Below are positions 14,528 through 52,653 of a stretch of 54,271 nucleotides of DNA, in pieces. A model generated the notes under the pieces. The model made no database searches, was not told the origin of the DNA, and was given only the letters and a program-made list of their open reading frames with translations. How positions within the stretch are numbered: position 1 is the first letter of the stretch; every line of letters starts with the position of its first letter. Made by a program: the position numbers and the translations under genes. Source of the DNA: a virus; the IMG/VR virus record IMGVR_UViG_3300021197_001370, positions 1-54,271 of that record. One strand, 5' to 3'.

Positions 14528-15443
14528 TACTTTTAGAGTTATAGATTGTGACATTATATATCTAAGCTACGACGAGCCAAATGCAGAACAAAACTATGCA
14601 GATTTGTGTAAGAAAGTTCCATGGGCTGAACGTGTACACGGTGTCAAAGGCAGTGACAGCGCACACAAAGCAGCCGCTAACAAATCAACTACTGATAGGT
14701 TTATTACAATAGACGGCGATAATATTATTGATGAAAAGTTTTTGTCTCAAACAATGGACTTTGATGAAAACACTGACTTGACTAATAAAGTTATTAGTTG
14801 GACTGCACTTAACACTATTAATAATCTTACATACGGAAACGGCGGCATCAAGTGCTGGCCTAAACAACATGTATTAAACATGCGTACACACGAAAATGCG
14901 CCAGATGATAACCCACATGCACAAGTAGATTTCTGTTGGGATACACAGTACATACAAATGAATGGTACATACAGTACTATTATGAATAATGCTACACCTC
15001 ATCAGGCATGGCGTGCTGGATTTAGAGAAGGTGTTAAAATGGCACTTGATCAAGGCATGCGTGTTAGTGTAGAGGACTTCTATAAAAATCATTGGAAGAA
15101 CTTGCATCGGTTGTATATCTGGCTGATGGTAGGCGCAGATGTAGAAAACGGACGTTGGGCAATATACGGCGCACGGGAAGGCTTGTACAAAACAATGTGT
15201 ACAGATTGGGACTTTGTAAATGTACGTGATTTTGAGTGGCTTAATGAGTATTGGGATACTAAAGACATGGATGAAGATCAAATGGAAATAGAAACTGTTG
15301 GGCTTGGATATTCATTAATAGATGAACTCGAGTTGCCCATTGCTGCCGAACCACTTGATGGAAATCAAAGTCTATTCTTTAAAACAGTATATCAAAATCC
15401 AGCACGAGATAACAGCAAACAATTCTTAGATAGAGAGCAATAA
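14520..15443 (+). CDS. Glycosyltransferase-like protein (DGD type)
   Basis: The protein has 307 residues. The N-terminal strand I-I-Y-L-S-Y-D-E-P-N is followed by R-V-H-G-V-K-G near residue 39 and a D-G-D motif at residues 65-67, which suits metal and nucleotide-sugar binding in a GT-A fold. G-N-G-G-I-K follows near residue 107, and a helical C-terminal half contains A-W-R-A-G-F-R-E. The complete C-terminal domain of the 548-residue protein at 20212 is a clear paralogue with the same motifs. The two copies flank the minus-strand cassette at 16796-20133. The gene ends in TAATG, sharing one base with the radical SAM gene that follows. Confidence 0.55.
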   Translation: MANTFRVIDCDIIYLSYDEPNAEQNYADLCKKVPWAERVHGVKGSDSAHKAAANKSTTDRFITIDGDNIIDEKFLSQTMDFDENTDLTNKVISWTALNTINNLTYGNGGIKCWPKQHVLNMRTHENAPDDNPHAQVDFCWDTQYIQMNGTYSTIMNNATPHQAWRAGFREGVKMALDQGMRVSVEDFYKNHWKNLHRLYIWLMVGADVENGRWAIYGAREGLYKTMCTDWDFVNVRDFEWLNEYWDTKDMDEDQMEIETVGLGYSLIDELELPIAAEPLDGNQSLFFKTVYQNPARDNSKQFLDREQ

Positions 15444-16816
15444 TGGAACGCAGCGAAAGCGAAGAAATCAAGCGTATCGATAAGATTACGCAGGAAATAT
15501 CTCCTACGTTTTGTTTTGCAAAATGGTATCATGCAAACATCTATTTTCAGACAGGCGAAACACATAGTTGTTATCATCCTGCTCCTCATAAGATCGACGC
15601 AGCGCCACTTCTAACTAATCCAAGTGCTATTCATAATACAGTACAGAAAAAAGCAGAACGTGCTGCTATGATGAAAGGCGAGCAACCTAGTGGATGCAAC
15701 TATTGCTGGAAGATTGAAGCAATGGGCAAAGATTATGTTAGCGATAGAAAACAACGCAACCAAACTATCTTCTTTAAAGAACGCTTGAAAGCTGTCAAAG
15801 AAGGTGGCGCAGAGTTTGATGTTAATCCAGAATATTTGGAAGTTAGCTTTGGTAATGAGTGCAACTTCCGTTGCGGTTATTGTCATCCAAAGGCTAGTAG
15901 TCGTTACCACCAAGAAATCAAGCAACACGGGCCTTACACAAACGTAAAAAATCACAGATGTGATATTGACTGGTTTGAAATCTTTGAAGAACAAAGCAAT
16001 CCGTATTTAGATGCATTTTGGAAATGGTGGCCCGAGCTTAGTAAAGAACTGCATATCCTACGTATCACAGGCGGTGAGCCTACAATACAACAAAGCACAT
16101 ACAAACTGTTTGATATGTTGGATGCAGACCCTAAGCCAGAACTAGAACTAAACTGCAACAGCAACTTGGGCGGGAAGCCCAAGCAGTTGGAAAAGTTTAC
16201 AAACCGTGTGAATGACTTGTTGACAAACAACAAGATTAGACGTTTTAAAATGTTTACAAGTATTGACACTTGGGGCAAACGTGCAGAGTATATCCGTGAT
16301 GGGCTAGACATTGAAGTGTTCGAACGCAACTTGGATTACTTTATGCGCAACTGTGAAGCACCAATGGTTATTATGATTACATTTAATATTTTCAGTGTCA
16401 CTACATTCCGTACATTGCTTGAAAAGATTCTTGAATGGCGTAAAAAATATAATGATGTAGAAACACACAGATGGCAACGACTAGGGTTTGATACTCCGCA
16501 TCTCAAAGAACCGTTACAGTATGATATTAATATCTTGCCTAAAAACTACATGAGTTACATGCACGATCATTTGCAGTTTATAAAAGAAAATACAGATGAC
16601 AATCGTAAAGATGCATTTAGTACTATTGAATATGAAAAGTTTCGTCGTGTAGTTGATTATATGGAGTCTACAGAATACCCATTAGATAAAGTTATTCAAG
16701 GACGCAGAGATTTCCACAACTTTTTTGAAGAGCAAGGACGTAGACGTAATGTCGATCACGAACAAGTGTTTCCAGAAATGACAGACTTTTTTGATCTATG
16801 TAAGAAATATATCTAA
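15443..16816 (+). CDS. Radical SAM protein with N-terminal twitch-like cysteines
   Basis: The protein has 457 residues. The radical SAM signature Cx3Cx2C is at residues 140, 144 and 147 (CNFRCGYC), and the G-G-E-P SAM-binding motif is near residue 208. Before the barrel are four cysteines at 24, 43, 85 and 88. They resemble a twitch/SPASM auxiliary iron-sulphur domain placed at the N-terminus instead of the usual C-terminus. The C-terminus ends with a V-F-P-E-M motif shared with the related enzymes at 24820 and 27053. The gene is visibly less AT-rich than its neighbours. It converges on and overlaps the minus-strand gene ending at 16796 by 21 bases. The substrate is unknown; peptide or sugar modification is typical of twitch enzymes. 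Confidence 0.85.
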   Translation: MERSESEEIKRIDKITQEISPTFCFAKWYHANIYFQTGETHSCYHPAPHKIDAAPLLTNPSAIHNTVQKKAERAAMMKGEQPSGCNYCWKIEAMGKDYVSDRKQRNQTIFFKERLKAVKEGGAEFDVNPEYLEVSFGNECNFRCGYCHPKASSRYHQEIKQHGPYTNVKNHRCDIDWFEIFEEQSNPYLDAFWKWWPELSKELHILRITGGEPTIQQSTYKLFDMLDADPKPELELNCNSNLGGKPKQLEKFTNRVNDLLTNNKIRRFKMFTSIDTWGKRAEYIRDGLDIEVFERNLDYFMRNCEAPMVIMITFNIFSVTTFRTLLEKILEWRKKYNDVETHRWQRLGFDTPHLKEPLQYDINILPKNYMSYMHDHLQFIKENTDDNRKDAFSTIEYEKFRRVVDYMESTEYPLDKVIQGRRDFHNFFEEQGRRRNVDHEQVFPEMTDFFDLCKKYI

Positions 16817-18665: not shown

Positions 18666-18702
18666 ATTTTAAACTCCTTTAAAGAAACTTTATTATGATG
18701 TT

Positions 18703-18731
18703 AGTATAGCATATTTTTTAGTGTAAGTCAA
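18703..18731 (-). promoter_or_regulatory. Near-consensus sigma70 promoter
   Basis: On the minus strand, TTGACT (18731-18726) and TATACT (18708-18703) are 17 bases apart. The -35 box lies inside the end of the fibre gene. The transcript would start near 18696, giving a leader of about 30 bases with AAAGGAG before the ATG at 18665. It drives the three-gene run DUF6356-like, adenylating enzyme, GNAT-like. Confidence 0.75.
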
Positions 18732-20133
18732 CCCAAGATGTTCCGTCATATCCCTGAAATTTGTTGTTACTAGTGTTAAATAATATCATGCCTGCTTCTG
18801 CTGCCATACTATCTCTGTCAGCAAATGTAGTGCCTCTTGCTTTAAATACTGGAACTTCTAATACACCTTTGTTATTAAACTCTAGTCTGTTTGCTGTATT
18901 TGTGACGTGTGTATTAGCTGCTGTACTCAGCTGAACACCAAACCCTGTTGGTATGGTATTTCCGTTTGCATCAGGTGTACCATCAACTTTAAAACCAAAC
19001 ATTCCGCCTCGTTTGTATTCAGTTCCGTTGTATCCCCAGCTTTCGATACTTAAAAGTTCGTCATTGTTTAGTAGAGATGTTTTGTTATTATTTGATCCTC
19101 TATGCGAAAGTGAGTCTATTGAATCCGTTTGTATAGTTAGACTATCAGCAATAATATTCACTTCATCTTCTTCGCTACCAATATTTATTTTATCATTTAC
19201 ACCACTAATAAGTGTACCATTGCTTCCGCCAGATATGATATTAGTAATGCCGTCATCGCCTTGTGTGTCATATGCAACTGCGCCAACAAGTCTTCCTATA
19301 AAGTCTGCTTTGTGAGTTGGCGAGCTTTCCAGAGACAATCTCATTACAGGTGTACCATCATAATGATTCAAGTTAGCTCTTACTTCTGTGTCAGCTCTAG
19401 TTGCACCAATATTTACTATAGGACCACGTGCAACTGCATCTTCTGCAGGATATACTGGGTGTGCAAGTCCACCGTAAAACTCCCACTGATTGTATCCGCC
19501 AGTGTTGTTATGTCCGGTAAGACGTGTAGCAATATCATCGCCTGGCTGGATAGCAAGTAGTTCGCCGGTAAGATTGCCTGTGACATTACCTGTTACATCG
19601 CCTATTACATCACCTACTACATCGCCTGTGTGTGTACCTGTAGTATCACCAAAAAAGTCTCCATAACTTGTACCATTAAAGTCGCCATTGAATGTACCGT
19701 ATATTACACTATCTGCTGTGATACTACCTGTTAAGTCACCATAAAATGAGCCAGTAATACTATCTGCTATAATAGATCTTGCTCCGGTATTAACAATAAT
19801 ATCGCCTTCGCTATCTACAACATTGCCAACAACATTAGCAATAACCGTTCCAGTTTCGCCATCAAATGCTAAAGCACCGTCGTTGTCGTATACACTACCA
19901 GTAACACTACCAGTTAGATCGCCCGCCGAGGATAAAACAGTGCTGCCATTAGCGTCTTCAATTGTACCAACTAACGTACCGTATAATTTTCCAGTATCAA
20001 CATCGACTAGTATAATACCATTGATATCAACAACACTTGCTTTAATCTGTCCCTGCCAGCTGTCGACAATCACTGTCTCGTCTGCTGTAATAATATCTAG
20101 TCGGTATGCTTCACCTGGTATAAAATCGGTCAT
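18718..20133 (-). CDS. Repeat-rich tail fibre-like protein
   Basis: The protein has 471 residues. The first half consists of short repeats of the form G-D/N-x-x-G, for example G-D-V-T-G-N-V-T-G-N (near residues 165-190), typical of an extended beta-helical fibre shaft. The last 30 residues contain G-M-I-L-F-N-T-S and a final G-Y-D-G-T-S-W, common at the end of phage fibre shafts before a chaperone or tip domain. The ATG at 20133 is chosen over an upstream GTG at 20166 because AGAGGA lies ten bases before it and the late promoter core at 20164-20157 would otherwise be coding. It is the only clear virion gene inside the accessory region. Confidence 0.7.
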   Translation of the reverse strand: MTDFIPGEAYRLDIITADETVIVDSWQGQIKASVVDINGIILVDVDTGKLYGTLVGTIEDANGSTVLSSAGDLTGSVTGSVYDNDGALAFDGETGTVIANVVGNVVDSEGDIIVNTGARSIIADSITGSFYGDLTGSITADSVIYGTFNGDFNGTSYGDFFGDTTGTHTGDVVGDVIGDVTGNVTGNLTGELLAIQPGDDIATRLTGHNNTGGYNQWEFYGGLAHPVYPAEDAVARGPIVNIGATRADTEVRANLNHYDGTPVMRLSLESSPTHKADFIGRLVGAVAYDTQGDDGITNIISGGSNGTLISGVNDKINIGSEEDEVNIIADSLTIQTDSIDSLSHRGSNNNKTSLLNNDELLSIESWGYNGTEYKRGGMFGFKVDGTPDANGNTIPTGFGVQLSTAANTHVTNTANRLEFNNKGVLEVPVFKARGTTFADRDSMAAEAGMILFNTSNNKFQGYDGTSWVDLH

Positions 20134-20156
20134 TTTTGTTGGTTCCTCTTCTCTAG

Positions 20157-20164
20157 TATTTATC
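20157..20164 (-). promoter_or_regulatory. T4-type late promoter core
   Basis: GATAAATA is read on the minus strand 23 bases before the ATG at 20133, the same distance as the plus-strand late core at 3707-3715 keeps from its gene. It shares the 78-base divergent intergenic region with a sigma70-type promoter that faces the other way. Confidence 0.65.
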
Positions 20165-20175
20165 ACATTCTGTTC

Positions 20176-20204
20176 TTGACTTGTTGATTAAAATATGTTA
20201 TAAC
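20176..20204 (+). promoter_or_regulatory. Sigma70-type promoter with leaderless downstream gene
   Basis: TTGACT at 20176-20181 and TATAAC at 20199-20204 are separated by 17 bases. Transcription would begin at about 20211-20213, which coincides with the ATG at 20212, and no Shine-Dalgarno sequence precedes that ATG. This is the head of the long plus-strand run of radical SAM and partner genes. Confidence 0.7.
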
Positions 20205-20211
20205 TAGTAGT

Positions 20212-21168
20212 ATGTATGATATAATCTTTATTGGCGAAAAAAACAAACAGTGGAAGTCTGCAAAACAACGATTTCCGCTTTTAAAACATGCAAACACACT
20301 AGATGATGCAAAGCGTATTTGTATAACAAAAATGTTTTGGGTAGTTTGGCCCGACATTATAATAAACAATGACTTTAACTTTGATTACGAGCCAGATGCA
20401 TGGAGTACAGAGTACATACATGTATTCAAAAACAATGAATATTATGATGGAGTCTGTCTAATACCAAAGTCTTCTGAAGTGTCAGTTAAAGAGTTACAAC
20501 ATCGATTTTTTGTTAATAAAAAAGAAGTTGATATACAAGCAAGCAGACCTTGTGCGTATGATATTTTTAACATTGATACATATGCAGATTATTTGTCTGC
20601 ATTAGAAACTAGTGAAACAGATATGTTTTGGATGAGTACTACTAATATTGGTATCGATACAGAGTTTGTTAACAACTATTATATTCCACATCATGAAGTA
20701 CAAATACTTTCGCAAAATCATGCATTTGTGCATCAAGTTGATGACAAAGAGTTATATAATGGATTATTCCTTTGTAGTAAAAAATCTGAGTTATCTAAAA
20801 AAGAAGTTGAGCACAGATTTATAGTTAATAAAATTGAACACGATATTGTTGCAAGTGGTCCTACAAAATATAATGTTTTTAATAAAGTTGATACCTATGA
20901 AGAATATTTGTCAGCATTAGAGACTAGTGGTACAGAAATGTTTTATGTTGTTCCGTCTAGTGTCATTGTATCTAACGATTTTAACTTTGATCAATATTTT
21001 CCACATGACAATGTATTTGATAGAAAAATAAATCATATGTTTTTAAATGGTAAGTTCCATGACGGAGTTATACTTTGTAGTAAACATTCTAAAATTAGCG
21101 AACGTGAATGGCTATTTAGATTTATTGCTAATAAAAAAGAACATGATATTGCAGCTAGTATACCTGTG
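20212..21168 (+). repeat. Three in-frame repeats of a partial glycosyltransferase domain
   Basis: The coding repeats share Y-L-S-A-L-E-T-S in units two and three, H-R-F-x-V-N-K in units one and two, and R-F-I-A-N-K-K in unit three. Each unit ends with D-I-x-A-S. They align with the start of the intact domain that follows, which points to tandem partial duplication followed by divergence. Confidence 0.6.
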
Positions 21169-21858
21169 TTGTATGATATAGTTTTTATTAGTTATCAAGA
21201 ACCAAATGCAGATGAAAACTTTGAAAATTTAAAAACTAGATTTCCAGACAGAGTAATACACAGAGTACACGGAGTTAAAGGAATACATCAAGCACATATT
21301 GAAGCAGCAAAAGCATGTGATACACCTATGTTTTATATAGTTGATGGTGATGCCGTAGTTGTTGATGATTTTAATTTTGATTGGCAAGTTCCTGCTTGGC
21401 AGTATAATCACGTACATGTATGGCGCAGTAAAAATCCAGTAAATGGATTGGTTTACGGATATGGTGGCATTAAGTTATTTCCGAGACTCGAAACACTTAA
21501 TATGGACACTAGCAAACCTGACATGACTACAAGTATTAGTGATAAGTTTGTAGCTATGCCAAAGGTTTCGAATATCACAGCATTTAATACAGATCCTTTT
21601 AATGCGTGGAAAAGTGCATTTAGAGAATGTGCAAAGTTATCAAGTAAAGTCATTGATAGGCAAAAGAGTAAGGAAACTAATGAACGTTTAAGGACTTGGT
21701 GTATACATATGATACCCGATACTCCGTTTGGAGAAGATGCTCTGCAAGGAGCAAAGGCAGGAACAGCATATGGTACTAGAAACAAAGGCAATGTTGAAGC
21801 ATTAAAAAATATTAATGACTTTGATTGGTTAAAGGAAAAATTTAATGGAAATACATAA
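20212..21858 (+). CDS. Glycosyltransferase-like protein with three degenerate N-terminal repeats
   Basis: The protein has 548 residues. The C-terminal domain (about 320-548) is a paralogue of the 14520 glycosyltransferase-like protein: Y-D-I-V-F-I-S-Y-Q-E-P-N, R-V-H-G-V-K-G and D-G-D at 378-380. In front of it lie three units of about 105 residues (1-115, 116-217, 218-319) that look like cut-down, decayed copies of the same domain. They keep a D/N-F-N-F-D or similar strand and an H-R-F-x-V/A-N-K signature but lose the D-G-D. They may be binding or scaffolding modules, not active sites. The ATG coincides with the predicted transcript start, so the mRNA may be leaderless. Confidence 0.6.
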   Translation: MYDIIFIGEKNKQWKSAKQRFPLLKHANTLDDAKRICITKMFWVVWPDIIINNDFNFDYEPDAWSTEYIHVFKNNEYYDGVCLIPKSSEVSVKELQHRFFVNKKEVDIQASRPCAYDIFNIDTYADYLSALETSETDMFWMSTTNIGIDTEFVNNYYIPHHEVQILSQNHAFVHQVDDKELYNGLFLCSKKSELSKKEVEHRFIVNKIEHDIVASGPTKYNVFNKVDTYEEYLSALETSGTEMFYVVPSSVIVSNDFNFDQYFPHDNVFDRKINHMFLNGKFHDGVILCSKHSKISEREWLFRFIANKKEHDIAASIPVLYDIVFISYQEPNADENFENLKTRFPDRVIHRVHGVKGIHQAHIEAAKACDTPMFYIVDGDAVVVDDFNFDWQVPAWQYNHVHVWRSKNPVNGLVYGYGGIKLFPRLETLNMDTSKPDMTTSISDKFVAMPKVSNITAFNTDPFNAWKSAFRECAKLSSKVIDRQKSKETNERLRTWCIHMIPDTPFGEDALQGAKAGTAYGTRNKGNVEALKNINDFDWLKEKFNGNT

Positions 21859-22885: not shown

Positions 22886-23096
22886 ACTAAGTGTAAGAGA
22901 ACTTCAAAAAGAAAGTGCAAGAGCTCTTAGTACAATACAAGCTACAAATAATAATATTTGGCAGTTTAACAAGCAAGCACACCACAACAGTCAAAACTGG
23001 TATAAGGCTGTCATTGTCTGGTACATTGACGAGTATGGCGACCTACCTAGTAATTCTGGCCCTGGTAAAGATGTAAAGTTGATATTAGATGACTGA
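22872..23096 (+). CDS. Small unknown protein
   Basis: The protein has 74 residues and is mostly helical, with an N-terminal E-L-S-V-R-E-L-Q-K-E segment and a C-terminal Y-G-D-L-P-S. The only available start is TTG at 22872, inside the end of the upstream gene, and the stop overlaps the next ATG. The ribosome binding site is weak, so translation probably depends on coupling. It is the one small ORF in the island long enough to be a carrier or leader peptide. It has no cysteine, no G-G cleavage site and no core-like repeat, so a precursor role is not supported. Confidence 0.5.
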   Translation: MDISELSVRELQKESARALSTIQATNNNIWQFNKQAHHNSQNWYKAVIVWYIDEYGDLPSNSGPGKDVKLILDD

Positions 23097-34318: not shown

Positions 34319-34329
34319 GGAGAACATTA

Positions 34330-41450: not shown

Positions 41451-41451
41451 T

Positions 41452-45006: not shown

Positions 45007-46066
45007 AACAAGTCAAATAGGTAGAATACAAATAGAATTAACAAACTATTGTAATGCAGCATGTCCTCAGTGCGATCGTTATGAGCAGTATGTTGATTGG
45101 AAAAATGGAAGAATAAAAGATCTTGGATTAAATGATGCATGGTTTACTCTAAAAGATATCAAAAAAATGTTAAAAAATCATAAATGGGACAAACTTGAAA
45201 TTGTACATATGTGCGGAAATGTCGACGAGCCGACTGTAAATCCTCAAATGTTAGAAATTTCAAAATATATTGCAACAAATATCAAATGTAGAGTTTGTAT
45301 TTCAACAAACGGTGGAACTAGAGATGAAGAGTTTTGGACAAACCTAGGAAAACTATCAAAAGAAACTAAAAATATTATAGTTGTATTTGGAATTGACGGT
45401 CTAGAAGATACTAATCACATTTATCGAGTTCATGTTGATTGGAAAAAACTACAGCGTAACTGGCGTGCTTATATTAATGCAGGCGGCTGGGCCGAATGGC
45501 AATTTATTGTGTTTGATCATAACAAACATCAAATAGAAGATGCAAAAAAAATGTCAATCGAAGAAGGCTTTTATAATTTTAAAATAATACAATCTGGTCG
45601 TGCAGATGTACTTGATTTACCCGATAATGATACTAAAAAGCAACAACCTGAAAAAGTTAAAAAACAAGAAGTACAAACTCCAGAATGGTATAATAGCGTA
45701 AATCCAAATACAATAGACGGTATTCCAGTAAAGGAATTTAAAAAAACTTCTCCTCAACTTGAATGTGTACGCTGCCCAGCAAAGTTAAACTCTAGAATAA
45801 CTAAGTTTCATAATGGCATAGATGGTAATATTTATATCAGTGCTAAAGGATATGTAACTCCATGTTGTTGGATGGGAAATCCTAGAGAACTAGATAAACT
45901 TTGGAAAACAGCTCCTAATTTAGATCCAAAAACGCACAACGTTCGTTATCATTCACTTGAAGATATAATTAATGGAGATTGGTTTGAACATATTAATAAC
46001 CAGTTACAAACATACGAGCTATGTGTGTTTAAATGTAAAAATCTAATAGGAGATATACATTTATAA
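44990..46066 (+). CDS. Radical SAM protein, DTNHxYR family
   Basis: The protein has 358 residues from the ATG at 44990; the longer frame from 44876 would run through the PP-loop gene and is not used. Cx3Cx2C is at 21, 25 and 28 (CNAACPQC), G-N-V-D-E-P replaces G-G-E-P, and D-T-N-H-I-Y-R is near residue 140. The tail cysteines E-C-V-R-C, T-P-C-C-W and C-V-F-K-C match those of the 23744 and 25992 enzymes. A Gln/Lys-rich linker near 215-235 is specific to this copy. It is followed by the second promoter of the plus-strand run. Confidence 0.85.
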   Translation: MNKWFETSQIGRIQIELTNYCNAACPQCDRYEQYVDWKNGRIKDLGLNDAWFTLKDIKKMLKNHKWDKLEIVHMCGNVDEPTVNPQMLEISKYIATNIKCRVCISTNGGTRDEEFWTNLGKLSKETKNIIVVFGIDGLEDTNHIYRVHVDWKKLQRNWRAYINAGGWAEWQFIVFDHNKHQIEDAKKMSIEEGFYNFKIIQSGRADVLDLPDNDTKKQQPEKVKKQEVQTPEWYNSVNPNTIDGIPVKEFKKTSPQLECVRCPAKLNSRITKFHNGIDGNIYISAKGYVTPCCWMGNPRELDKLWKTAPNLDPKTHNVRYHSLEDIINGDWFEHINNQLQTYELCVFKCKNLIGDIHL

Positions 46067-46068
46067 GG

Positions 46069-46096
46069 TTGACTTTTACTATAAAAATGTTATTAT
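46069..46096 (+). promoter_or_regulatory. Sigma70-type promoter with leaderless downstream gene
   Basis: TTGACT at 46069-46074, a 16-base spacer and TATTAT at 46091-46096 lie in the 36-base gap before the ATG at 46103. The transcript would start on or next to the ATG, and no Shine-Dalgarno sequence is present. This is the same arrangement as at 20176-20212. Confidence 0.6.
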
Positions 46097-46102
46097 TAAA
46101 AT

Positions 46103-47218
46103 ATGAATCAAGATTTAAAATGGTCCAACTATGACTTTACTAAAATACCCTTTGACGATATTGTTAGTGTTGGTCAGCGTACCCTGTTGTATCGCGATAT
46201 ATTTACTGTTAGCTGGCTCCTTGGAAGGTTCTGCAACTACAAATGCTCTTACTGTTGGCCTTACGCCCGCAGTGACCGTAAAGACCACCGTCCTACAGAA
46301 CTATGCTTACGGACCATAGATGAAATAAAGAGGCAAGCACGTGAAAACGGATTTAATAGTTATCATTTTAGTCTTAGTGGCGGCGAGCCTACTTTCCATC
46401 CTGGCTACTTGGATATTCTACAGCATTTGGCTGATGACGTAGACAACACCAACTATACAAGTGTACACATGACATCTAACTGTAGTCGCAACATGGCATG
46501 GTTTGAAAAGTATGTCGAAGCAGTTAAGCCCTTTCACCGTGCCAGCATTACAGCAAGTTTGCACACAGAACACTTAAATACAGTTGAGAAGATGCAAGAC
46601 TTTGCAGACAAACTAATCTTCTGTCAGGAGCACGATGTTCAAGTTACAATCAATATGGTTATGGTTCCAGACTGGTTTGAAAGAGATTGGAAAAACGCCC
46701 TGTTCTTCCACGAGCAAGGAATCAACGTTACACTCAAACCGCAATCAGACCCTACTGCTAGTAGGGTGGTTGATGGATACAAACCGGAGGACCTAAAGCG
46801 TTTGCACAACGGAATGCCGCAACGTGCATATACAGAAAGCAAAAGAGTATGGGCAGAACGTCCTAAGCCTAAATTTGAAATACCAAAAGATATGATGTAC
46901 ATGCCTGATGCAAAAGTGCCTTGGCATATGCAAGTAGAATTTAGAGATAAAGCCGGTAAAGCATGGTATATGGATCAAGCAGAACGTTTTAATGCTTTCA
47001 ACTTTAACAAGTTTAAAGGTTGGAGTTGCAATGCTGGATATCAAGGTATCATTATACGCGAACCAGATGGTAGTGTAAAGCGCAGTTACAGTTGCCACGA
47101 TGTTCCTCTAGGAAACATTGAAACAGGGTTTAAACTGTTTGATAAGCCTATGCCTTGTATTACGGACAGTTGTGTAAGCAGTGCTGATAGTAAGATACCT
47201 AAAAGGAAAGTGAAATGA
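46103..47218 (+). CDS. Radical SAM protein with SPASM-like tail
   Basis: The protein has 371 residues. Cx3Cx2C is at 44, 48 and 51 (CNYKCSYC), after an N-terminal extension of about 35 residues, and S-G-G-E-P is near residue 90. The tail has G-W-S-C-N-A-G, E-P-D-G-S-V-K-R, Y-S-C-H and two further cysteines, the same order as the 37038 enzyme. By eye the gene is clearly richer in G and C than the oxygenase genes that follow. It has its own promoter and heads the sub-run of three oxygenase-like genes, overlapping the first by four bases. Confidence 0.85.
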   Translation: MNQDLKWSNYDFTKIPFDDIVSVGQRTLLYRDIFTVSWLLGRFCNYKCSYCWPYARSDRKDHRPTELCLRTIDEIKRQARENGFNSYHFSLSGGEPTFHPGYLDILQHLADDVDNTNYTSVHMTSNCSRNMAWFEKYVEAVKPFHRASITASLHTEHLNTVEKMQDFADKLIFCQEHDVQVTINMVMVPDWFERDWKNALFFHEQGINVTLKPQSDPTASRVVDGYKPEDLKRLHNGMPQRAYTESKRVWAERPKPKFEIPKDMMYMPDAKVPWHMQVEFRDKAGKAWYMDQAERFNAFNFNKFKGWSCNAGYQGIIIREPDGSVKRSYSCHDVPLGNIETGFKLFDKPMPCITDSCVSSADSKIPKRKVK

Positions 47219-47787
47219 ATTTTGTCGAAATAGATACACTACCTGTATATGATTTGCATACAGAGTTTTTAAGATTGTTAGACGAAAAAAAAATCTGGTG
47301 GCACCATGATGTAAACGATCAAATATGTTTAAATGCAACTGAGAACGACCCTTCAAACTGTTTAACAGGTAGAGGTAGTTTGTTTTTAGATTGGGATCAA
47401 TCTTATGAAAATGAAAACGGAGATATAATAATCCCTAGAAGACTAGTACCATTTAAAGAAACAGATTTTAAAGTATTATGTTCTGGATTTAAAGACTCAT
47501 TATTCGAAGATGTTTATAATAAAATAACTGAAAGATATATAGTTGGCCGCATCAGAATTATGAATAGTAAACCTAAAACCTGCCTTAGCTGGCATCATGA
47601 TCAAACACCAAGACTTCATTATCCAATCAAAACTCAAGATGGGTGTTTTATGGTTATTGAAAATGAAAGTAAGCATTTAAAACAAAATCAGTGGTATTGG
47701 ACAAATACAACTGTACCACATACTGTATTTAATGGTAGTACAGAGATAAGATTGCATCTTGTAGTAACAATATTAGGAGAACAATAA
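47215..47787 (+). CDS. Aspartyl/asparaginyl beta-hydroxylase-like Fe(II)/2OG enzyme
   Basis: The protein has 190 residues. W-H-H-D-Q-T-P-R-L-H-Y-P near residue 123 gives His-x-Asp and the following R-L-H-x-P, and V-P-H-T-V-F-N-G near 166 gives the distal histidine. E-I-R-L-H-L-V-V supplies the 2OG-binding arginine. That order is typical of the Asp/Asn beta-hydroxylase family, which hydroxylates side chains in proteins or free amino acids. Expression is coupled to the radical SAM gene before it (ATGA). The next gene starts two bases after its stop codon. Confidence 0.7.
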   Translation: MNFVEIDTLPVYDLHTEFLRLLDEKKIWWHHDVNDQICLNATENDPSNCLTGRGSLFLDWDQSYENENGDIIIPRRLVPFKETDFKVLCSGFKDSLFEDVYNKITERYIVGRIRIMNSKPKTCLSWHHDQTPRLHYPIKTQDGCFMVIENESKHLKQNQWYWTNTTVPHTVFNGSTEIRLHLVVTILGEQ

Positions 47788-47788
47788 T

Positions 47789-48280
47789 ATGAAATGGTTC
47801 GACATTGACATCCAACTTAATAATAATGACAAAGAATGGATGTTTGAAATCGGAAATAATATTAAAGAACCTAGTTGGACTATTAGACCTTATAAGCTAT
47901 CCGATCAAGAAATGAATAATATTTCTTTAATAACTGATCAACTTCCTATTCAGCCTGAATATGCAGCTATTATTATGGTTCCTGCAGGTACAATGTGTAA
48001 AACTCATGTTGATGACAGAGCTAACGCTAATGGAGTAAGACAACGAATAACAGCAATTAATATACCTATTAAGGTACATGAAACAAGCATGTTTCAATAT
48101 ATGACAGATATGGAAAGCGATGAAATTATTGAAACTATATCTCTTAATACTCCTAAATGTTGGAGAGTAGATATTCCACACAGGGTTGATAATAGATTGA
48201 GTCCATTTAATAGAGTTGTTTTAAGTCTATCTTTAACTCAGACAGTAGGTGAAATATATGAAATATATACAAGAACTTAA
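47789..48280 (+). CDS. Fe(II)/2OG oxygenase-like protein
   Basis: The protein has 163 residues, small for the fold. C-K-T-H-V-D-D near residue 71 gives His-x-Asp, I-P-H-R-V-D-N near 129 gives the distal histidine and R-V-V-L-S-L-S-L gives the arginine. The segment I-N-I-P-I after the His-x-Asp also occurs in the next protein, so the two are related. It is probably a minimal cupin-fold hydroxylase for an amino acid or peptide side chain. No further domain is present. Confidence 0.6.
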   Translation: MKWFDIDIQLNNNDKEWMFEIGNNIKEPSWTIRPYKLSDQEMNNISLITDQLPIQPEYAAIIMVPAGTMCKTHVDDRANANGVRQRITAINIPIKVHETSMFQYMTDMESDEIIETISLNTPKCWRVDIPHRVDNRLSPFNRVVLSLSLTQTVGEIYEIYTRT

Positions 48281-48833
48281 CTTAGATTTTGATAAAACTA
48301 TTTGTAAAAAATTTATACAAGAATCGTCTATTGATTTTGAAAAAATTAAACAAAAAAATAAATGGCATAATAATGTTTTAGTAACACAAGAACTAACTGA
48401 TCACATTGGCCCGATTACACAACATCTTAAAGATTGTGTTTTAATACTTACATTATTTCCAAAAAATGGAATAAACATACATGCAGATGGAGCAGCTACA
48501 CGATTAGATAACACTTATAATGTAAGTATTAATATTCCTGTAGAAAACTGTACTGAAGATACTAAAACTTATTTTTGGGACTTTGATGATGAACGTTCTA
48601 TAGAATATATTCATTTAGAGGATTTAGGAACAAGAGATATAGTAGATAAATCTCAATTAAAAAAGAAATATGAATATATTTTTAAAGATACTGCTGTTTT
48701 ATTTAGAAATGAATATCCGCACAGCGTAGAGAATAAATGCAAAGATTTAAGACTAATGCTCAGTTGGAGATTTAAACCTGAATATAGTTGGGAAGAATCT
48801 ATTGAAATTTGTAAACAATACAATCTTCTATGA
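48258..48833 (+). CDS. Fe(II)/2OG oxygenase-like protein
   Basis: The protein has 191 residues from the ATG at 48258, which has AGGTGA six bases upstream; a GTG at 48249 is the alternative. I-N-I-H-A-D-G near residue 73 gives His-x-Asp, E-Y-P-H-S-V-E-N near 154 gives the distal histidine and R-L-M-L-S-W-R-F gives the arginine. S-I-N-I-P-V corresponds to I-N-I-P-I in the previous protein. It is the last plus-strand gene; its stop lies 14 bases from the end of the convergent minus-strand gene. Confidence 0.6.
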   Translation: MKYIQELNLDFDKTICKKFIQESSIDFEKIKQKNKWHNNVLVTQELTDHIGPITQHLKDCVLILTLFPKNGINIHADGAATRLDNTYNVSINIPVENCTEDTKTYFWDFDDERSIEYIHLEDLGTRDIVDKSQLKKKYEYIFKDTAVLFRNEYPHSVENKCKDLRLMLSWRFKPEYSWEESIEICKQYNLL

Positions 48834-48847
48834 CACACTAACTACCG

Positions 48848-49537
48848 TCATATTATAAATTGTGTTCGCCACAATAATCTTTCGCCTTCAAATGCCACTC
48901 GTTTGTGAATCATCTTTAGGTTATCCCAAATCAAAACATCATTATCTTGCCAGTTGTGCATATATGCATTTTCTTCAATCCAATTTTCGAACGGTTTTAA
49001 ATCAACCTTATTTTCTTGTATGGTGTTTATACTACAATATAAAATCTCTTCACCTGTAATATGATGATTAGTAATAAACGGTCTTGTAATTTTTTGTTTT
49101 TTTAATAAAGCAAGTTGTTTTTCTGTAAAACACAAGTTATGCAAATCTGCCGGCGGATAATATTTTCCTATAGAATTTTTATAAATATTTTTTAAATCCT
49201 TAGGAGCATTACTTGTATCGCAAAACCATGTAGGTGATAGATGACCGTTTTTTACATTATGTAAAATAGTTCCAAAATAGTTTCCTCTTCCGTAACTCCA
49301 ATCGTTATGCCATCCCACATCACCGTTAGAAAACAACCCTTTATTGCTTAGTTCTTGTATAGTTCTTGCTTTGTTTAATACATGTTTTGTTGTAACAAGT
49401 GATTTGCCCATCTTGTTAGTTAACTCTTCAAAATCATCAACTTCTAAACAAGCATTTCTAATAACTATTAGACCGTGTTCTAGTAGTATCTTATGTAAAT
49501 CAAAATTATTAATATCGTTGTACTGAACTTCAAACAT
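48848..49537 (-). CDS. TauD/TfdA-like Fe(II)/2OG dioxygenase (HxD intact)
   Basis: The protein has 229 residues. G-W-H-N-D-W places His77 and Asp79 as iron ligands; His211 in M-I-H-K-R is the distal ligand and Arg220 or Arg224 (R-x3-R) the 2OG anchor. The motif order and spacing are those of TauD-type hydroxylases, though the protein is some 50 residues shorter than TauD. A second TauD-like gene at 50291 differs at the Asp. It is the last gene of the minus-strand run and overlaps the SGNH-like gene by eight bases. Confidence 0.75.
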   Translation of the reverse strand: MFEVQYNDINNFDLHKILLEHGLIVIRNACLEVDDFEELTNKMGKSLVTTKHVLNKARTIQELSNKGLFSNGDVGWHNDWSYGRGNYFGTILHNVKNGHLSPTWFCDTSNAPKDLKNIYKNSIGKYYPPADLHNLCFTEKQLALLKKQKITRPFITNHHITGEEILYCSINTIQENKVDLKPFENWIEENAYMHNWQDNDVLIWDNLKMIHKRVAFEGERLLWRTQFII

Positions 49538-50294
49538 TTTCTAAAACCCACTGACTTAATTCTTTGTGATACTTGTATCCTTCGTGATACCCATCTCTTG
49601 CTCTTGCGTTCTTGTCGGTATTTATAAAATGACAATCTAAATCTTTTGCTACTGAGTGTATATAACTAGATTCTAGTACGATAGTATTTGGAAAAAATTG
49701 GTTTATTTGTTTTTGAGATAAATGTGAACAATATAATGATCTTTCCTTATTATTTATCCAGCTTTTATAGTAGTCAGCACTAATGTTATGAATAGTTTTA
49801 TACCAAGATATACTCCATATCCCTAAGTTTTCTATTTTATTGTCAATGATATCATAAGTTCTATCATGAGTTGTCCAATTCACAACTACAAACTTTGGCT
49901 TTAAATTTCTAGAAGCAATCTCTAAAGCAATAATACTCATTAAAGTATTACTACCAGCAGGAACACCAAGATTTACACAATCAATACCTAAATAGTTTTC
50001 AACTAGTTTATTTGCTAATAAACTTTCTGGAACACCTTGGCCAAATGTGTTTGAACATCCTAAAAATAAACCAAAGTTATCCCAGTTTACAGTATTTAAT
50101 TCTTTATATCTAAATCCGTGCTTGTTAAACACATATGATATATCCATGTTTGTATCGTCATAATAACTATCAGGGTGAGTTTTTAGAAAAGTTTTCCAGC
50201 GTTCTTCCCAATTATCAGGAGAATCGATGCCAAAATAATCAAGTGTTTTAGAAGATATATCTAAAGGTTGTATAAAGTCTTCTAAATCTATCAT
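49530..50294 (-). CDS. SGNH hydrolase-like protein
   Basis: The protein has 254 residues. L-G-C-S-N-T-F-G puts Ser81 in the nucleophile position with Cys before it, V-N-L-G-V-P-A-G-S-N is block II, and A-R-D-G-Y-H near the C-terminus offers the Asp/His pair. N-K-H-G-F-R before the first strand matches N-K-F-G-Y-R in the 37925 protein. It lies between the two TauD-like genes, overlapping the upstream one by four bases and the downstream one by eight. Confidence 0.6.
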   Translation of the reverse strand: MIDLEDFIQPLDISSKTLDYFGIDSPDNWEERWKTFLKTHPDSYYDDTNMDISYVFNKHGFRYKELNTVNWDNFGLFLGCSNTFGQGVPESLLANKLVENYLGIDCVNLGVPAGSNTLMSIIALEIASRNLKPKFVVVNWTTHDRTYDIIDNKIENLGIWSISWYKTIHNISADYYKSWINNKERSLYCSHLSQKQINQFFPNTIVLESSYIHSVAKDLDCHFINTDKNARARDGYHEGYKYHKELSQWVLENV

Positions 50295-51187
50295 TCAATG
50301 AGGCTCGCACAAGACCATTCAGTTGGGTTTTTATCTTCTAGTTCTTCGGGCCGATACCATATACCTGCTCTCCATAGCTCTCGATCGCCAGTGTATGCCT
50401 CTCTCTTGTGTAGACTATGATGTTGATCGCTAAAACAAATATCATAAGAATTCCATTTGTGTGTATAAACATATTTTTCACTTAGTGTATGATCTTTTAG
50501 TTTATAATAAAGATCGTGTTGATCATTATGAGATAATCCAGAAAATCCTCGAATAACACTCCAGGGAAAATATAACCCTTCTTTGCCATTAACTGGATGT
50601 ATAGTTACAAGATCTTTTCGCGGAGTCTGTTTTTCAAAAGAAGTCATTCCGTCTATATCTCTAAACTCCATCATTGTTTGCTCGTCGCTAAACACATTCT
50701 TATAATGCATTTTTTCTAGTTTCATTTTAGCATTATATGTAACTGTTTTTGATTTTATTTTACGACAGATTTCTTTAGTATCGTCATCTAAATCTTCAAA
50801 TGCAGTTTGACTATCAGAGAAGAACGTATTTCCACCACTTTCAGAATTTTGATGCATGTACATTACTACAATATCATCGTGACCATTACGATTCATACCA
50901 GCACTATGCCATTCAAGTTCGCCGTCATCTTCGCCACTAAAAAGTCCATTCTTTCGAACTCTGATTAATTCGCCGTGACCGTTAACATTACCTTTAACTT
51001 TTGCATTTTGTGCTACAACATTTCCAATAGTCTTGTAAAAAGGTATTAACGTTTCAGGCGGCACAGGATCATTATTTCTAACCACTACTACTCGACAATC
51101 GCCAATGAGTTGACGAATTTTTTCTGCATCATTATTATAGTCACATTCCGATACAATCGCTGCAAACTTATTTTTCTCTACAATCAT
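50291..51187 (-). CDS. TauD-like Fe(II)/2OG enzyme with HxA metal site (candidate halogenase)
   Basis: The protein has 298 residues. E-W-H-S-A-G puts His94 and Ala96 where TauD has His99 and Asp101. The distance from this His to the G-G-x-T motif (Thr121) is the same as from His99 to Thr126 in TauD, so the alignment is firm. The distal His260 and the R-x3-R pair at 269 and 273 are present. Loss of the Asp ligand with all else kept is the hallmark of Fe(II)/2OG halogenases such as SyrB2 (HxA) and BesD (HxG), where chloride fills the site. A dead or repurposed enzyme is the alternative. AAGGAT precedes the ATG. Confidence 0.75.
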   Translation of the reverse strand: MIVEKNKFAAIVSECDYNNDAEKIRQLIGDCRVVVVRNNDPVPPETLIPFYKTIGNVVAQNAKVKGNVNGHGELIRVRKNGLFSGEDDGELEWHSAGMNRNGHDDIVVMYMHQNSESGGNTFFSDSQTAFEDLDDDTKEICRKIKSKTVTYNAKMKLEKMHYKNVFSDEQTMMEFRDIDGMTSFEKQTPRKDLVTIHPVNGKEGLYFPWSVIRGFSGLSHNDQHDLYYKLKDHTLSEKYVYTHKWNSYDICFSDQHHSLHKREAYTGDRELWRAGIWYRPEELEDKNPTEWSCASLIE

Positions 51188-51731
51188 TTTTTATCCTTTT
51201 TAACTCTATTTTTTTATAATGTTCTGATATAGGCAACCAAGTTATATATTGTTGACAACTATTGTCACCATTGCACACATTAAATTTATCTGTTTCTATA
51301 ATCCATTTGTCCAGTTTTAACTTATTTAAGTAATACTTAAATGGAGTAGCTCCAGTATTACTTTCTCGACTCATAAAAACATAATCAAAATTTAGTTTTC
51401 TACAAATATCAACTTGATCTAATATCATTTTTTTAGTTAATAATATATCTTTTGTTGCAAATCGATAGTTATTTGATTTATAAAATCTATTTAAAATTCG
51501 ACAACCATTTCCAAACATGTCTCTATGTATAACAGTACTAAACCCTAATATGTTAGTATCTTGATGATATACTGAAACAGCAATGCTATCACTAGTACTC
51601 ATTTGATAATATGCATAGTTTTCTTTTCGTTTACAAGATAAATCTTCGATTGTTAAGAATTTATTAATCTTTTTACAAGTTGATAAAAATAAATCATCAT
51701 TCCTTATAAATGTACTTACATTAATATCCAT
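51168..51731 (-). CDS. GNAT-like protein
   Basis: The protein has 187 residues from the ATG at 51731, chosen because AAGG lies nine bases before it; three in-frame ATGs lie further upstream. The strand I-A-V-S-V-Y followed by I-L-G-F-S-T-V-I-H and a helix after L-L-T-K-K-M-I-L resembles the core of GNAT folds, but the acyl-CoA loop is not distinct. It is probably distantly related to the 16796 protein. It overlaps the radical SAM gene upstream by 11 bases and the candidate halogenase downstream by 20. Confidence 0.4.
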   Translation of the reverse strand: MDINVSTFIRNDDLFLSTCKKINKFLTIEDLSCKRKENYAYYQMSTSDSIAVSVYHQDTNILGFSTVIHRDMFGNGCRILNRFYKSNNYRFATKDILLTKKMILDQVDICRKLNFDYVFMSRESNTGATPFKYYLNKLKLDKWIIETDKFNVCNGDNSCQQYITWLPISEHYKKIELKRIKNDCREK

Positions 51732-52653
51732 TTTCATTAGCCTTGACATGTTCAAAAAACGGAGCAATAGTAAAGTTTTCTGTTAAACGACCTCTATTAG
51801 GGTTGTCATGATCGATAACTCCATCGTCGTTAGTTTGCCAATCAATTAATCTAACAAGTATATTACCTGCATTTGTTTTATAAGGAAACATCATTGACGT
51901 TAGAGCTTCCATTGTTGGTCCAGCCCTTACAACACCTGCAGATGTTTTAATCATTTGTTCTTTTTTTACGCCTAATCTGTTTTCGGCTAAAGTTATAAGT
52001 TCGTCCATAGTATACGAACACTCTTCCATAAATCTACCAATTTGTCCTACAGATTTCATTCTAAGAACTGGTGTGATTTTGTTATAAGGAGGAGTTGTAT
52101 CAAAGTTAATATTATTTTTTAAAGCAGTATCAGCAAATACTTCAATTTGCCTTTTCATTGTAAACTCGTTTATTCCTTTTGCAATAATAGTACCAGTATT
52201 GATTGGTAATCTTTCTGCAAAAATATTATTAAGAGCCTTTAACTTTACATTTGCCCATTTGCCATTATCAAGTGTTTTGTATACACTATTATCGTCGGCT
52301 CCATTCATACTATGTAATAATAATCTTAAACCAGAATCTTTAAGAGATTTAACATATTTCTTATTAGCTAACTTTAATCCATTAGTAGTTAAACTAGGCC
52401 TATGCCCTATTTTTTTAATAGTTGAAATTATTTCACATAAATCAGATCGCATGGTTGGTTCTGCCCCTATAATTCTTATGTAAGTACGATTAGGCAATCG
52501 CGATAAAAAATTATAGAGTTTTTTCTTATCTAAGTCTGGAACATCTCTATTTGGTATATAACAGTTAGCACATTCCATATTGCATTGATGAGTGATATCA
52601 ATAACAATATTACTAAATGTATTTTCTTCTGGTTGCAATTCAAAATAATTCAT
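51721..52653 (-). CDS. Radical SAM protein, MoaA/SPASM-like barrel
   Basis: The protein has 310 residues. Cx3Cx2C is at 24, 28 and 31 (CNMECANC) with Tyr following, and I-G-A-E-P-T near residue 64 is a variant of G-G-E-P-T. The C-terminal half has a single cysteine (C-S-Y-T near 187), so an auxiliary cluster is unlikely, unlike all the other radical SAM proteins in the window except perhaps the 29314 one. A-G-P-T-M-E-A-L-T-S near 240 may cap the barrel. It leads the minus-strand run with the TauD-like enzymes. Confidence 0.85.
   Translation of the reverse strand: MNYFELQPEENTFSNIVIDITHQCNMECANCYIPNRDVPDLDKKKLYNFLSRLPNRTYIRIIGAEPTMRSDLCEIISTIKKIGHRPSLTTNGLKLANKKYVKSLKDSGLRLLLHSMNGADDNSVYKTLDNGKWANVKLKALNNIFAERLPINTGTIIAKGINEFTMKRQIEVFADTALKNNINFDTTPPYNKITPVLRMKSVGQIGRFMEECSYTMDELITLAENRLGVKKEQMIKTSAGVVRAGPTMEALTSMMFPYKTNAGNILVRLIDWQTNDDGVIDHDNPNRGRLTENFTIAPFFEHVKANENGY

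What the first reader, a model, noticed from the sequence alone, without database searches (positions are those of the whole stretch)
15443..52653. Fifteen radical SAM enzymes in one phage accessory island
Fifteen genes carry Cx3Cx2C in a radical SAM context: 15443, 23744, 24820, 25992, 27053, 29314, 31455, 33140, 34330, 35702, 37038, 42113, 44990, 46103 and 51721 (minus). They fall into about five families by motif: N-terminal twitch-like (seven, one atypical), DTNHxYR (three), CGCGLC tail (two), EPDG tail (two), and one without auxiliary cysteines. Bacterial peptide-modifying clusters usually carry one to three. The mix with an adenylating enzyme, PP-loop ATPases, oxygenases, methyltransferases and a nitroreductase-like protein looks like a biosynthetic system of an undescribed kind. 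The product is not known.
Basis: partly seen in the sequence, partly recalled or inferred. Interest (0 to 1): 0.9.

Follow-up and report, generated by a model that had tools for sequence, protein, structure and literature searches.

The report
Radical-enzyme island in T4-like phages
A virus of bacteria carries fifteen iron-sulphur radical enzymes near its tail genes; three of them form a set that also occurs in chromosomes of some Bdellovibrio-like bacteria, often near sugar-transfer genes, so the virus may use them inside its host to build an unusual sugar-based structure.

Summary
Confirmed: the record holds exactly 15 radical SAM (rSAM) matches, seven of them N-twitch. It is a lineage trait: 50 of 50 related records carry 5-21, and larger relatives are T4-like. 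rSAM-rich phages are already in print (CP220/CPt10, a T4-like Tara virus, pelagimyophages). New in my searches: (1) a conserved triad (23744, 27053, 46103): 27053 orthologs (51-64% identity) lie in 20 of 368 Bdellovibrionota genomes, with both partners in 12 of 18 opened and no gp23 in the three tested. (2) Family-2 glycosyltransferases are enriched beside these triads: 14 of 120 neighbours, at most 1 of 120 controls. (3) The main unit and 46103 often start with a sigma70-type promoter just before the ATG (35 of 43 and 21 of 39 upstreams); tail-like genes lack it. (4) Four related PP-loop proteins (one modelled: QueC-like fold) lack QueC's motifs and sit beside rSAM genes. Best reading: a glycan-linked pathway made early in infection and acting on the host surface (0.4). 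Substrate, product and timing are unproven.

The parts
2..11914 (+). virion/tail-like module (g2, 3739, 4341, 6324, 8286, 9841, 10805), syntenic with relative G025
   Evidence: g2 matches phage proteins, some annotated 'virion structural protein', over residues 995-1081 (36.8%, E 3e-9); same order in G025, 124-136 kb. Tail-fibre identity itself is inferred
11968..14527 (+). 11968 (115 aa), 12312 and 13141 (glycogenin/GT8-like glycosyltransferase), 13985
   Evidence: profile of 13141 hits glycogenin, E 1.4e-6; 12312 and 13141 cross-match the same bacterial homologs
14520..15443 (+). HGVKG-family protein with VDGDN motif, suspected GT-A glycosyltransferase; core partner
   Evidence: relatives in Bdellovibrionota triad loci; link to GT2 weak (hhalign E 0.0099, probability 4%); no credible PDB match
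15443..16816 (+). rSAM, N-twitch
   Evidence: NF033640 298 bits
17385..18446 (-). AMP-binding (adenylating) enzyme
   Evidence: PF00501 E 7e-19
18718..20166 (-). repetitive fibre-like protein divergent from the island
   Evidence: weak PHROG matches of unknown function; fibre reading is inference
20176..20204 (+). sigma70-type promoter TTGACT-N17-TATAAC, 7 nt before the ATG of 20212
   Evidence: at least 10 of 12 matches at 4-8 nt in 35 of 43 distinct homologous upstreams
20212..21858 (+). multi-repeat HGVKG-family protein, first gene of the 31-gene run
   Evidence: GT2-like Pfam hit E 0.0015, below cut-off; single-domain homologs in bacteria
21845..22885 (+). phage-specific ~22-aa repeats fused to a methyltransferase-like domain
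   Evidence: repeat number varies among phages; C-terminal domain shared with Bdellovibrionota and Pelagibacter phage Mosig; no Pfam hit for the window protein, the name follows Mosig's annotation
22872..23096 (+). 74-aa conserved three-helix protein
   Evidence: 480 IMG/VR stretches encode it; 22 invariant columns in 48 rows; AF2 pLDDT 92.8; no PDB fold match at E <= 0.001
23744..24823 (+). rSAM, DTNHxYR; TRIAD member
24820..25995 (+). rSAM, N-twitch
   Evidence: NF033640 245 bits
25992..27056 (+). rSAM, NTNHIYR variant
27053..28450 (+). rSAM, N-twitch; TRIAD member, most conserved
   Evidence: NF033640 429 bits; the 80 viral relatives kept are 85-96% identical; 51-64% in Bdellovibrionota
28443..29321 (+). 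QueC-like PP-loop protein
29314..30648 (+). rSAM, N-twitch (atypical)
   Evidence: NF033640 192 bits; a relative is fused to a PP-loop domain, L058:12544-15033
30641..31465 (+). QueC-like PP-loop protein (structure modelled)
   Evidence: pTM 0.92; QueC 3bl5 Z 14.4, Cap9 Z 13.8, QatC Z 12.5
31455..32609 (+). rSAM, CGCGLC tail
   Evidence: 30-44% in Bdellovibrionota
32593..33147 (+). short-chain dehydrogenase-like protein
   Evidence: adh_short E 0.003, below cut-off; homologs by triads, best 36-39%
33140..34285 (+). rSAM, N-twitch
   Evidence: NF033640 239 bits
34330..35709 (+). rSAM, N-twitch
   Evidence: NF033640 374 bits
35702..37051 (+). rSAM, N-twitch
   Evidence: NF033640 358 bits
37038..37934 (+). 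rSAM, EPDG tail
37925..38626 (+). DUF6473/SGNH-like protein
   Evidence: DUF6473 E 5e-4, below cut-off; SGNH by eye
38616..39539 (+). PLP decarboxylase-like protein
   Evidence: E 5e-4, below cut-off; homologs by bacterial triads
39539..40285 (+). QueC-like PP-loop protein
   Evidence: PF06508 E 6e-4, below cut-off
40285..41450 (+). two methyltransferase-like proteins (40285, 40926)
42113..43309 (+). rSAM, CGCGLC tail
43290..44297 (+). nitroreductase-like protein
   Evidence: 26% to Mosig nitroreductase, E 2.5e-10; no Pfam hit
44293..45006 (+). QueC-like PP-loop protein with divergent SGGAES and C-x3-C-x2-C
44990..46066 (+). rSAM, DTNHxYR with C-terminal SPASM
   Evidence: PF04055 40 bits, SPASM 27 bits
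46069..46096 (+). sigma70-type promoter TTGACT-N16-TATTAT, 6 nt before 46103
   Evidence: with spacer 17, 21 of 39 homologous upstreams
46103..47218 (+). rSAM, EPDG tail; TRIAD member
   Evidence: PF04055 55 bits; 58-67% in full-length Bdellovibrionota copies
47215..48833 (+). Asp/Arg hydroxylase-like 47215 and two unassigned proteins (47789, 48258)
   Evidence: PF05118 E 1e-9 for 47215; none for the other two
48848..51767 (-). minus-strand block: two TauD-like oxygenases (48848, 50291), DUF6473-like 49530, unassigned 51168
   Evidence: TauD E 6e-24 and 9e-31
51721..52653 (-). rSAM, TrsS/MoaA-like, without auxiliary cysteines; own TTGACA-N17-TATAAT promoter 24 nt upstream
   Evidence: PF04055 52 bits

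Best explanation
The island is an enlarged tail-adjacent cluster like the host recognition cluster of marine T4-like phages. Its heart is a three-enzyme rSAM set (23744, 27053, 46103) with HGVKG-family and methyltransferase-like partners, the same set that sits in some Bdellovibrionota chromosomes, often near glycosyltransferases. Shown: the enzymes, their constraint, linkage, chromosomal twin, glycosyltransferase enrichment and sigma70-type promoter sequences. Inferred: host RNA polymerase transcribes the set early; the three rSAM enzymes act in turn on one sugar or glycan-linked intermediate; the other rSAMs, QueC-like ATPases (ATP-dependent amide or ligation chemistry), methyltransferases and oxygenases tailor it; glycosyltransferases pass it to the host envelope, changing the surface of the infected cell (for instance against superinfection). 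Attachment to the virion is less likely but not excluded.
For: Triad: 27053 orthologs in 20 of 368 Bdellovibrionota genomes at E <= 1e-100. Of 18 of these opened, 12 show all three members at my thresholds; G054 has the third cut by a piece border, in G201 and G271 it is cut or more distant, G163 and G228 end at contig borders, G253 shows two up to its contig end. Chromosomal: contigs up to 1.6 Mb, ordinary-looking genes around, no gp23 in G053-G055. GT2: 14 of 120 near neighbours against at most 1 of 120 controls, p 7e-4. In phages a GT8-like gene adjoins. Constraint: median pN/pS 0.13 and 0.15 for 27053 and 46103, synonymous sites near saturation. Promoters: 35 of 43 (20212) and 21 of 39 (46103) upstreams, against 0 of 61 for four tail-like genes and 31 of 20000 random positions; spacer 17 in 36 of 36 and 23 of 25. 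Phage copies of 27053 form one clade, 100/99, within a bacterial spread. Mosig's like island also has MoaA-like, aminotransferase, carbamoyltransferase and epimerase genes. CP220 puts rSAM genes next to two nucleotide-sugar-transferase-fold proteins.
Against: No substrate, product or expression data. The GT-A reading of 14520/20212 is weak. Eight of 18 bacterial loci show no GT2 by the local model, and some hold the triad among ordinary genes. Test neighbours from one locus are not independent, and controls come from 9 genomes against 18. Of the 25 Pfam families shown for 150 phage island families, few are sugar-nucleotide enzymes. In G253 a structural-protein homolog and the GT8 genes sit by the triad in phage order, which could point to a virion link or a phage remnant. 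A sigma70-type sequence is not proof of early transcription; in the window's own 15400-22000 stretch such sites are no more frequent than in shuffles.
Confidence: 0.4

Rival explanations
1. Virion decoration: the pathway glycosylates or otherwise modifies the phage's own tail or fibre proteins, and so tunes receptor binding or hides the virion.
For: The island follows tail-like genes in the window and in G025; a GT8-like gene is among its first enzymes; G253 keeps a g9841-like structural protein beside the same genes.
Against: The triad lives in chromosomes where the structural queries found nothing in the loci searched, G253 excepted; two island units carry sigma70-type promoters, tail-like genes do not.
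Confidence: 0.2
2. Protein or peptide modification: the rSAM enzymes act on a polypeptide (22872, the repeats of 21845, or another protein), as in RiPPs or enzyme maturation, with QueC-like ATPases joining groups as Cap9 does.
For: The nearest solved sequence relative of the twitch rSAMs is SkfB (E 2e-9); 21845 is next upstream of 22872 in 75 of 80 loci and a 23744-like gene follows within 1.5 kb in 56 of 70; the PP-loop model resembles Cap9 and QatC, which act (Cap9) or are proposed to act (QatC) on proteins.
Against: 22872 was not found in the bacterial loci and is compact rather than leader-core like; no shared small ORF by the bacterial triads compared, apart from one near-identical pair and a 7-residue match.
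Confidence: 0.2
3. A freely diffusing small molecule or cofactor (signal, antimetabolite or antibiotic-like compound) made during infection, with chromosomal relatives as secondary-metabolite clusters.
For: Mixed toolkit: AMP-ligase, nitroreductase-like protein, oxygenases, methyltransferases; one Trp halogenase and one carbamoyltransferase among 150 island families; CP220 has an amidinotransferase by its rSAM genes.
Against: No carrier-protein, NRPS/PKS or export family appeared in the scans of 30 window proteins; the bacterial triad often has no other tailoring genes beside it.
Confidence: 0.12
4. Nucleic-acid hypermodification (DNA or tRNA), with QueC-like enzymes as in 7-deazaguanine pathways.
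For: QueC-like fold; CP220 carries a QueD-like gene 6 kb from its rSAM cluster.
Against: QueD (PTPS) passes its cut-off in 0 of 51 records, with one weaker match; canonical QueC motifs are absent in 4 of 4 window proteins.
Confidence: 0.05

Closest known systems
Host recognition cluster (HRC) of pelagimyophages and cyanomyophages (PMC7029224, passages read)
   Same: large variable island by tail genes in T4-like marine phages, with glycosyltransferases and rSAM cassettes
   Different: here rSAM genes dominate (5-21 per record in the relatives), with a conserved triad, QueC-like ATPases and a bacterial counterpart; position between VrlC and gp14 not verified
Pelagibacter phage Mosig EXVC030M island (MT647606)
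   Same: tail-flanked island with MoaA-like, nitroreductase, Asp/Arg hydroxylase, TauD, GNAT and a methyltransferase homologous to 21845
   Different: two rSAMs found by Pfam, three annotated MoaA-like genes; 22872 and 27053 have no tblastn match in it
rSAM modules of Campylobacter phages CP220/CPt10 (PMC2853527, passages read)
   Same: 11 rSAM genes in CP220 (recounted), with an amidinotransferase and nucleotide-sugar-transferase-fold proteins
   Different: distant (29% for 25992); interchangeable modules judged likely non-essential by the authors
T4-like Tara genome TARA_ERS488813_N000010 (PMC5332604, section 14 read)
   Same: T4-like ocean virus with 12 rSAM genes
   Different: carries an A-type Fe-S carrier, which 0 of 51 records here have; sequence not compared
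QueC / Cap9 / QatC family
   Same: fold, SGGxDS loop and, in 3 of 4, a C(x)nCxxCxxC site
   Different: canonical QueC motifs absent; beside or fused to rSAM; no QueD over cut-off in the records
Bdellovibrionota chromosomal triad loci (not named in the papers searched)
   Same: orthologs of 23744, 27053, 46103 and relatives of 14520/20212 and 21845; some also PP-loop, 31455, 35702
   Different: no 22872 found, no repeats in the 21845-like proteins aligned, no structural genes found except in G253

Membership tests
Host recognition cluster of marine T4-like phages | phage of the T4 superfamily | tested here: met
   gp23 over cut-off in 9 of 18 viral records tested, window itself none (fragment); T4 core homologs in G025
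Host recognition cluster of marine T4-like phages | lies between VrlC and gp14 | tested here: inconclusive
   g2 not recognisable as Mosig VrlC; gp14 not looked for
Host recognition cluster of marine T4-like phages | tail-fibre genes plus glycosyltransferases in a variable island | tested here: met
   GT8-like 13141; variable content; fibre identity inferred
N_Twi_rSAM (NF033640) | score over 170 bits | tested here: met
   7 of 15
rSAM RiPP cluster | small precursor peptide next to the maturase | tested here: inconclusive
   22872 adjacent in phages but compact and not found in bacterial loci; no shared small ORF by triads of the 11 genomes compared beyond a near-identical pair and a 7-residue match
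rSAM RiPP cluster | leader-recognition (RRE) domain | not tested
   no dedicated search made
Canonical QueC (preQ0 synthase) | SGGxDS and C(x)nCxxCxxC | tested here: met
   SGGxDS strictly in 3 of 4 (the fourth has SGGAES); cysteine motif in 3 of 4
Canonical QueC (preQ0 synthase) | YxQxHxxE, VPxRN, YPDC (as listed in PMC13329287) | tested here: not met
   0 of 4
Canonical QueC (preQ0 synthase) | pathway partner QueD | tested here: not met
   0 of 51 records over cut-off, one sub-threshold match in G003; the records may be fragments
Prophage or phage remnant (as account of the chromosomal triads) | phage structural genes nearby | tested here: not met
   no window or Mosig structural query hit the loci searched at E 1e-3, except g9841-like in G253

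The most novel reading that the evidence does not exclude
The triad defines a new class of radical-built glycoconjugate pathway: three different rSAM enzymes working on one glycan-linked intermediate, of bacterial (Bdellovibrionota-like) origin and taken over once by a widespread group of T4-like phages, which express it early and diversify the product with up to about twenty further rSAM enzymes and QueC-like ligases to remake the infected cell's surface.
Probability: 0.25. Interest if true: 0.88.

Novelty: new variant of a known kind. Interest (0 to 1): 0.62.

Why it matters
Viruses are not expected to carry 15-20 iron-sulphur radical enzymes and to keep some of them under very strong selection. 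A cellular twin makes the question testable: the minimal unit is three rSAM genes that can be deleted in a bacterium or expressed together. If the glycan reading holds, it gives a chemistry to the long-noted but unexplained enzyme islands beside tail genes of marine T4-like phages.

Tried and rejected
Prophage explanation of the chromosomal triads: not supported, except that G253 may hold a phage-derived stretch. DNA deazaguanine pathway: QueD in 0 of 51 over cut-off. Own Fe-S supply: A-type carrier 0 of 51 and NifU_N 0 of 51, although one of 150 island families scored NifU_N (member not traced, its record may not be among the 51). TATAAATA is not enriched in the window (7 against 10.5 expected); [GT]ATAAATA before tail-like genes is only suggestive (15 of 61 upstreams over four genes; no shuffle test of GATAAATA). 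Within 15400-22000 promoter-like sites are no more frequent than in shuffles (30 against 28.6), so the promoter claim rests on position and conservation, not on the single site (100 of 2000 shuffles of the window upstream score as well). 14520 against GT8 by hhalign: nothing. 22872 against PDB folds: best Foldseek E 0.78. PP-loop profile against PDB sequences: nothing under 0.01 (best asparagine synthetase 0.012; Cap9 3.7), so 'QueC-like' rests on fold, cysteine pattern and weak Pfam hits. By Foldseek the tRNA thiolase NcsA ranks first and QueC second; by Z, NcsA (12.8) and MesJ/TilS (12.7) tie with QatC. megablast of 15443-40000 against phages: nothing. 22872 and 14520 against phages by tblastn: nothing. 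VrlC identity of g2: not shown.

Literature: PMC open papers only; none of the listed titles and abstract starts, nor the passages read, describes the triad or the Bdellovibrionota counterpart; subscription journals were not searched. Passages read: PMC2853527, PMC7029224, PMC9004378, PMC9301287, PMC13329287, PMC13279940, PMC7678222; PMC5332604 one passage and section 14.

Full report
Observation. A whole-record search returns fifteen PF04055 matches, at the listed genes. Eleven pass Pfam's cut-off, two more pass NF033640, and two (23744, 25992) pass no curated cut-off but keep Cx3Cx2C and auxiliary cysteines across homologs. Thirteen lie in one run of 31 plus-strand genes, 20212-48833, most of them overlapping.

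A lineage trait. A scan of IMG/VR with 27053 found 246 relatives; the 80 kept are 85-96% identical. In 50 of 50 related records, chosen from these and from the 25992 scan mainly for length, PF04055 gives 5-21 matches; the 256-kb record G025 has 20. gp23, the T4 capsid gene, is over cut-off in 9 of 18 viral records tested, and G025 has homologs of Mosig's terminase, portal, sheath, capsid and polymerase. The window's gene order from g2 to 15443 is that of G025, 124-141 kb. Among genes found in at least 70 of the 152 loci compared, the best conserved are 27053 (median 88%), 46103 (84%), 22872 (77%) and 23744 (72%); 42113, 44990 and 51721 have no relative at 60% identity there (the loci were chosen by 27053 and 25992 and have limited flanks). 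In 41 loci chosen by the non-rSAM gene 22872, a best match to 23744 and to 27053 follows within 9.9 kb in all 41.

The chromosomal twin. A profile of the PP-loop proteins found MAG contigs titled as Bdellovibrionales or Bdellovibrionia among others. Around them lie orthologs of 27053, 23744 and 46103 with relatives of 20212, 14520 and 21845. Across the phylum 20 of 368 genomes hold a 27053 ortholog at 51-64% identity. Eighteen of the 20 were opened widely (G159 and G166 were not): twelve show the whole triad at my thresholds (G161, G164, G165, G157, G155, G053, G131, G160, G055, G229, G227, G358); G054's third gene is cut by a piece border, in G201 and G271 it is cut or more distant, G163 and G228 end at contig borders, and G253 shows two up to its contig end. 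G055's cluster follows genes that look like rho, prfA and murA (recognised by eye, no family search). No gp23 is found in G053-G055, and structural queries hit none of the loci searched except a g9841-like protein in G253, where 11968, 12312, 13141 and 14520 relatives follow in the phage's own order. In a tree of 27053 the 26 phage copies are one clade (100/99); two MAG contigs, one from a genome that also has gp23, are next to it, then G253, all within the bacterial spread. One transfer from bacteria is the simplest reading; the root is not proven. 22872 was not found in the bacterial loci, and the 21845 repeats are absent from the bacterial sequences aligned.

Glycan link. I took 120 proteins of at least 130 residues within 6 kb of triad genes, without window homologs or Cx3Cx2C, and 120 random ones from distant stretches of nine of the same genomes. 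Fourteen of the first are family-2 glycosyltransferases by Pfam; of the second at most one is, as families with one member are not all listed (Fisher p 7e-4 with one). Ten of 18 genomes contribute by a local model, which was built from some of the same sequences. Polysacc_synt_2, epimerase and RmlD families score two each in the near set (not traced to loci), and L310 (G358) has a relative of Mosig's sugar aminotransferase. In the phage 13141 is glycogenin-like; 14520 and 20212 carry a VDGDN motif and may be GT-A proteins, but the evidence is weak.

Expression. A sigma70-type site of at least 10 of 12 matches, spacer 17, ending 4-8 nt before a start codon is found for 20212 in 35 of 43 distinct upstreams, for 46103 in 21 of 39, for 14520 homologs (which include 20212-type genes) in 32 of 96, and for the other 23 genes tested in 0 or 1 each; for a single random position 31 of 20000 (several starts per gene were tried, so the true background is higher). 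The usual distance is 5-7 nt, which would give nearly leaderless messages. Several other units of the window have such sites at 17-37 nt. The four tail-like genes have none in 61 upstreams and carry [GT]ATAAATA 18-45 nt upstream in 15 of 61. In T4, sigma70-type promoters are early and TATAAATA late (general knowledge); that the same holds here is inference.

QueC-like partners. Four PP-loop proteins accompany the rSAMs. A model of 30641, built on an alignment with the other three (pTM 0.92), is nearest to QueC (Z 14.4) and Cap9 (13.8); NcsA, MesJ and QatC follow at 12.5-12.8. Sequence profiles find no significant PDB match. Canonical QueC substrate motifs are missing in all four (motifs from PMC13329287). 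Cap9 and, by proposal, QatC join deazaguanine to a protein N-terminus (PMC13279940). In L058 one 830-aa frame joins a 29314-like rSAM to a PP-loop domain, in a cluster of six non-redundant frames of which only this example was inspected. Activation of a carboxylate for amide formation is the likely chemistry, inferred from the family.

Constraint. Against divergent phages synonymous differences are near saturation (median pS about 0.73) while 27053 keeps 88% identity; median pN/pS is 0.13 for 27053, 0.15 for 46103, 0.18 for 22872 and 0.39 for 21845 (twelve comparisons each).

Prior art. CP220 and CPt10 carry 11 and 12 rSAM proteins (PMC2853527); I recount 11 in CP220. A T4-like Tara genome has 12 with an Fe-S carrier (PMC5332604). 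Pelagimyophages differ by rSAM cassettes in their host recognition cluster, and their authors suggest host O-chain change by its glycosyltransferases (PMC7029224). Hence the numbers and the kind of place are known; the triad, its chromosomal counterpart, the promoters and the QueC-like pairing were not found in the papers searched.

Verdict. A new variant of a known kind of phage island, with an unusually firm core. What the product is remains open; glycan chemistry in the infected cell is the best supported of the readings, at 0.4.

Noticed in passing
window 21845-22885; L042, L058, L070: N-terminal ~22-aa repeats (DLRKAV-EDN-HSLFRLLG) of variable number, absent in some phages, many in others, where the frame also takes in 14520/20212-type domains (about 1,045-1,092 aa).
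   Followed up: partly
window 22872-23096: 74-aa protein seen only in phages, in 480 IMG/VR stretches, compact three-helix model, no PDB fold match; could be an adaptor for the rSAM enzymes.
   Followed up: partly
window 20176-20212, 46069-46103 and homologs: -10 box ends 5-7 nt before the ATG: probably nearly leaderless transcripts.
   Followed up: partly
L308:19794 to L309:3797 (G253): Bacterial contig with a g9841-like structural protein followed by 11968, 12312, 13141 and 14520 relatives in phage order; phage remnant, ancestral unit or assembly join.
   Followed up: partly
L259-L261 (G054:C1): A second Bdellovibrionota cluster with eleven PF04055 matches in 27 kb, apart from the triad locus of the same genome.
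   Followed up: no
L262-L263, L279, L306 and others: Some Bdellovibrionota loci carry paired small membrane proteins (HTTM-like by eye) and B12-binding-type rSAM-like proteins (by eye) beside the rSAM genes.
   Followed up: no
window 52703-54271, minus: Subtilase-like protein (by eye), matching PHROG 9158 of unknown function, at the window's end.
   Followed up: no
L230:3372-4787: Tryptophan-halogenase-like frame by eye in a related island; one of 150 families scored Trp_halogenase (E 3e-77), not traced to this frame.
   Followed up: no
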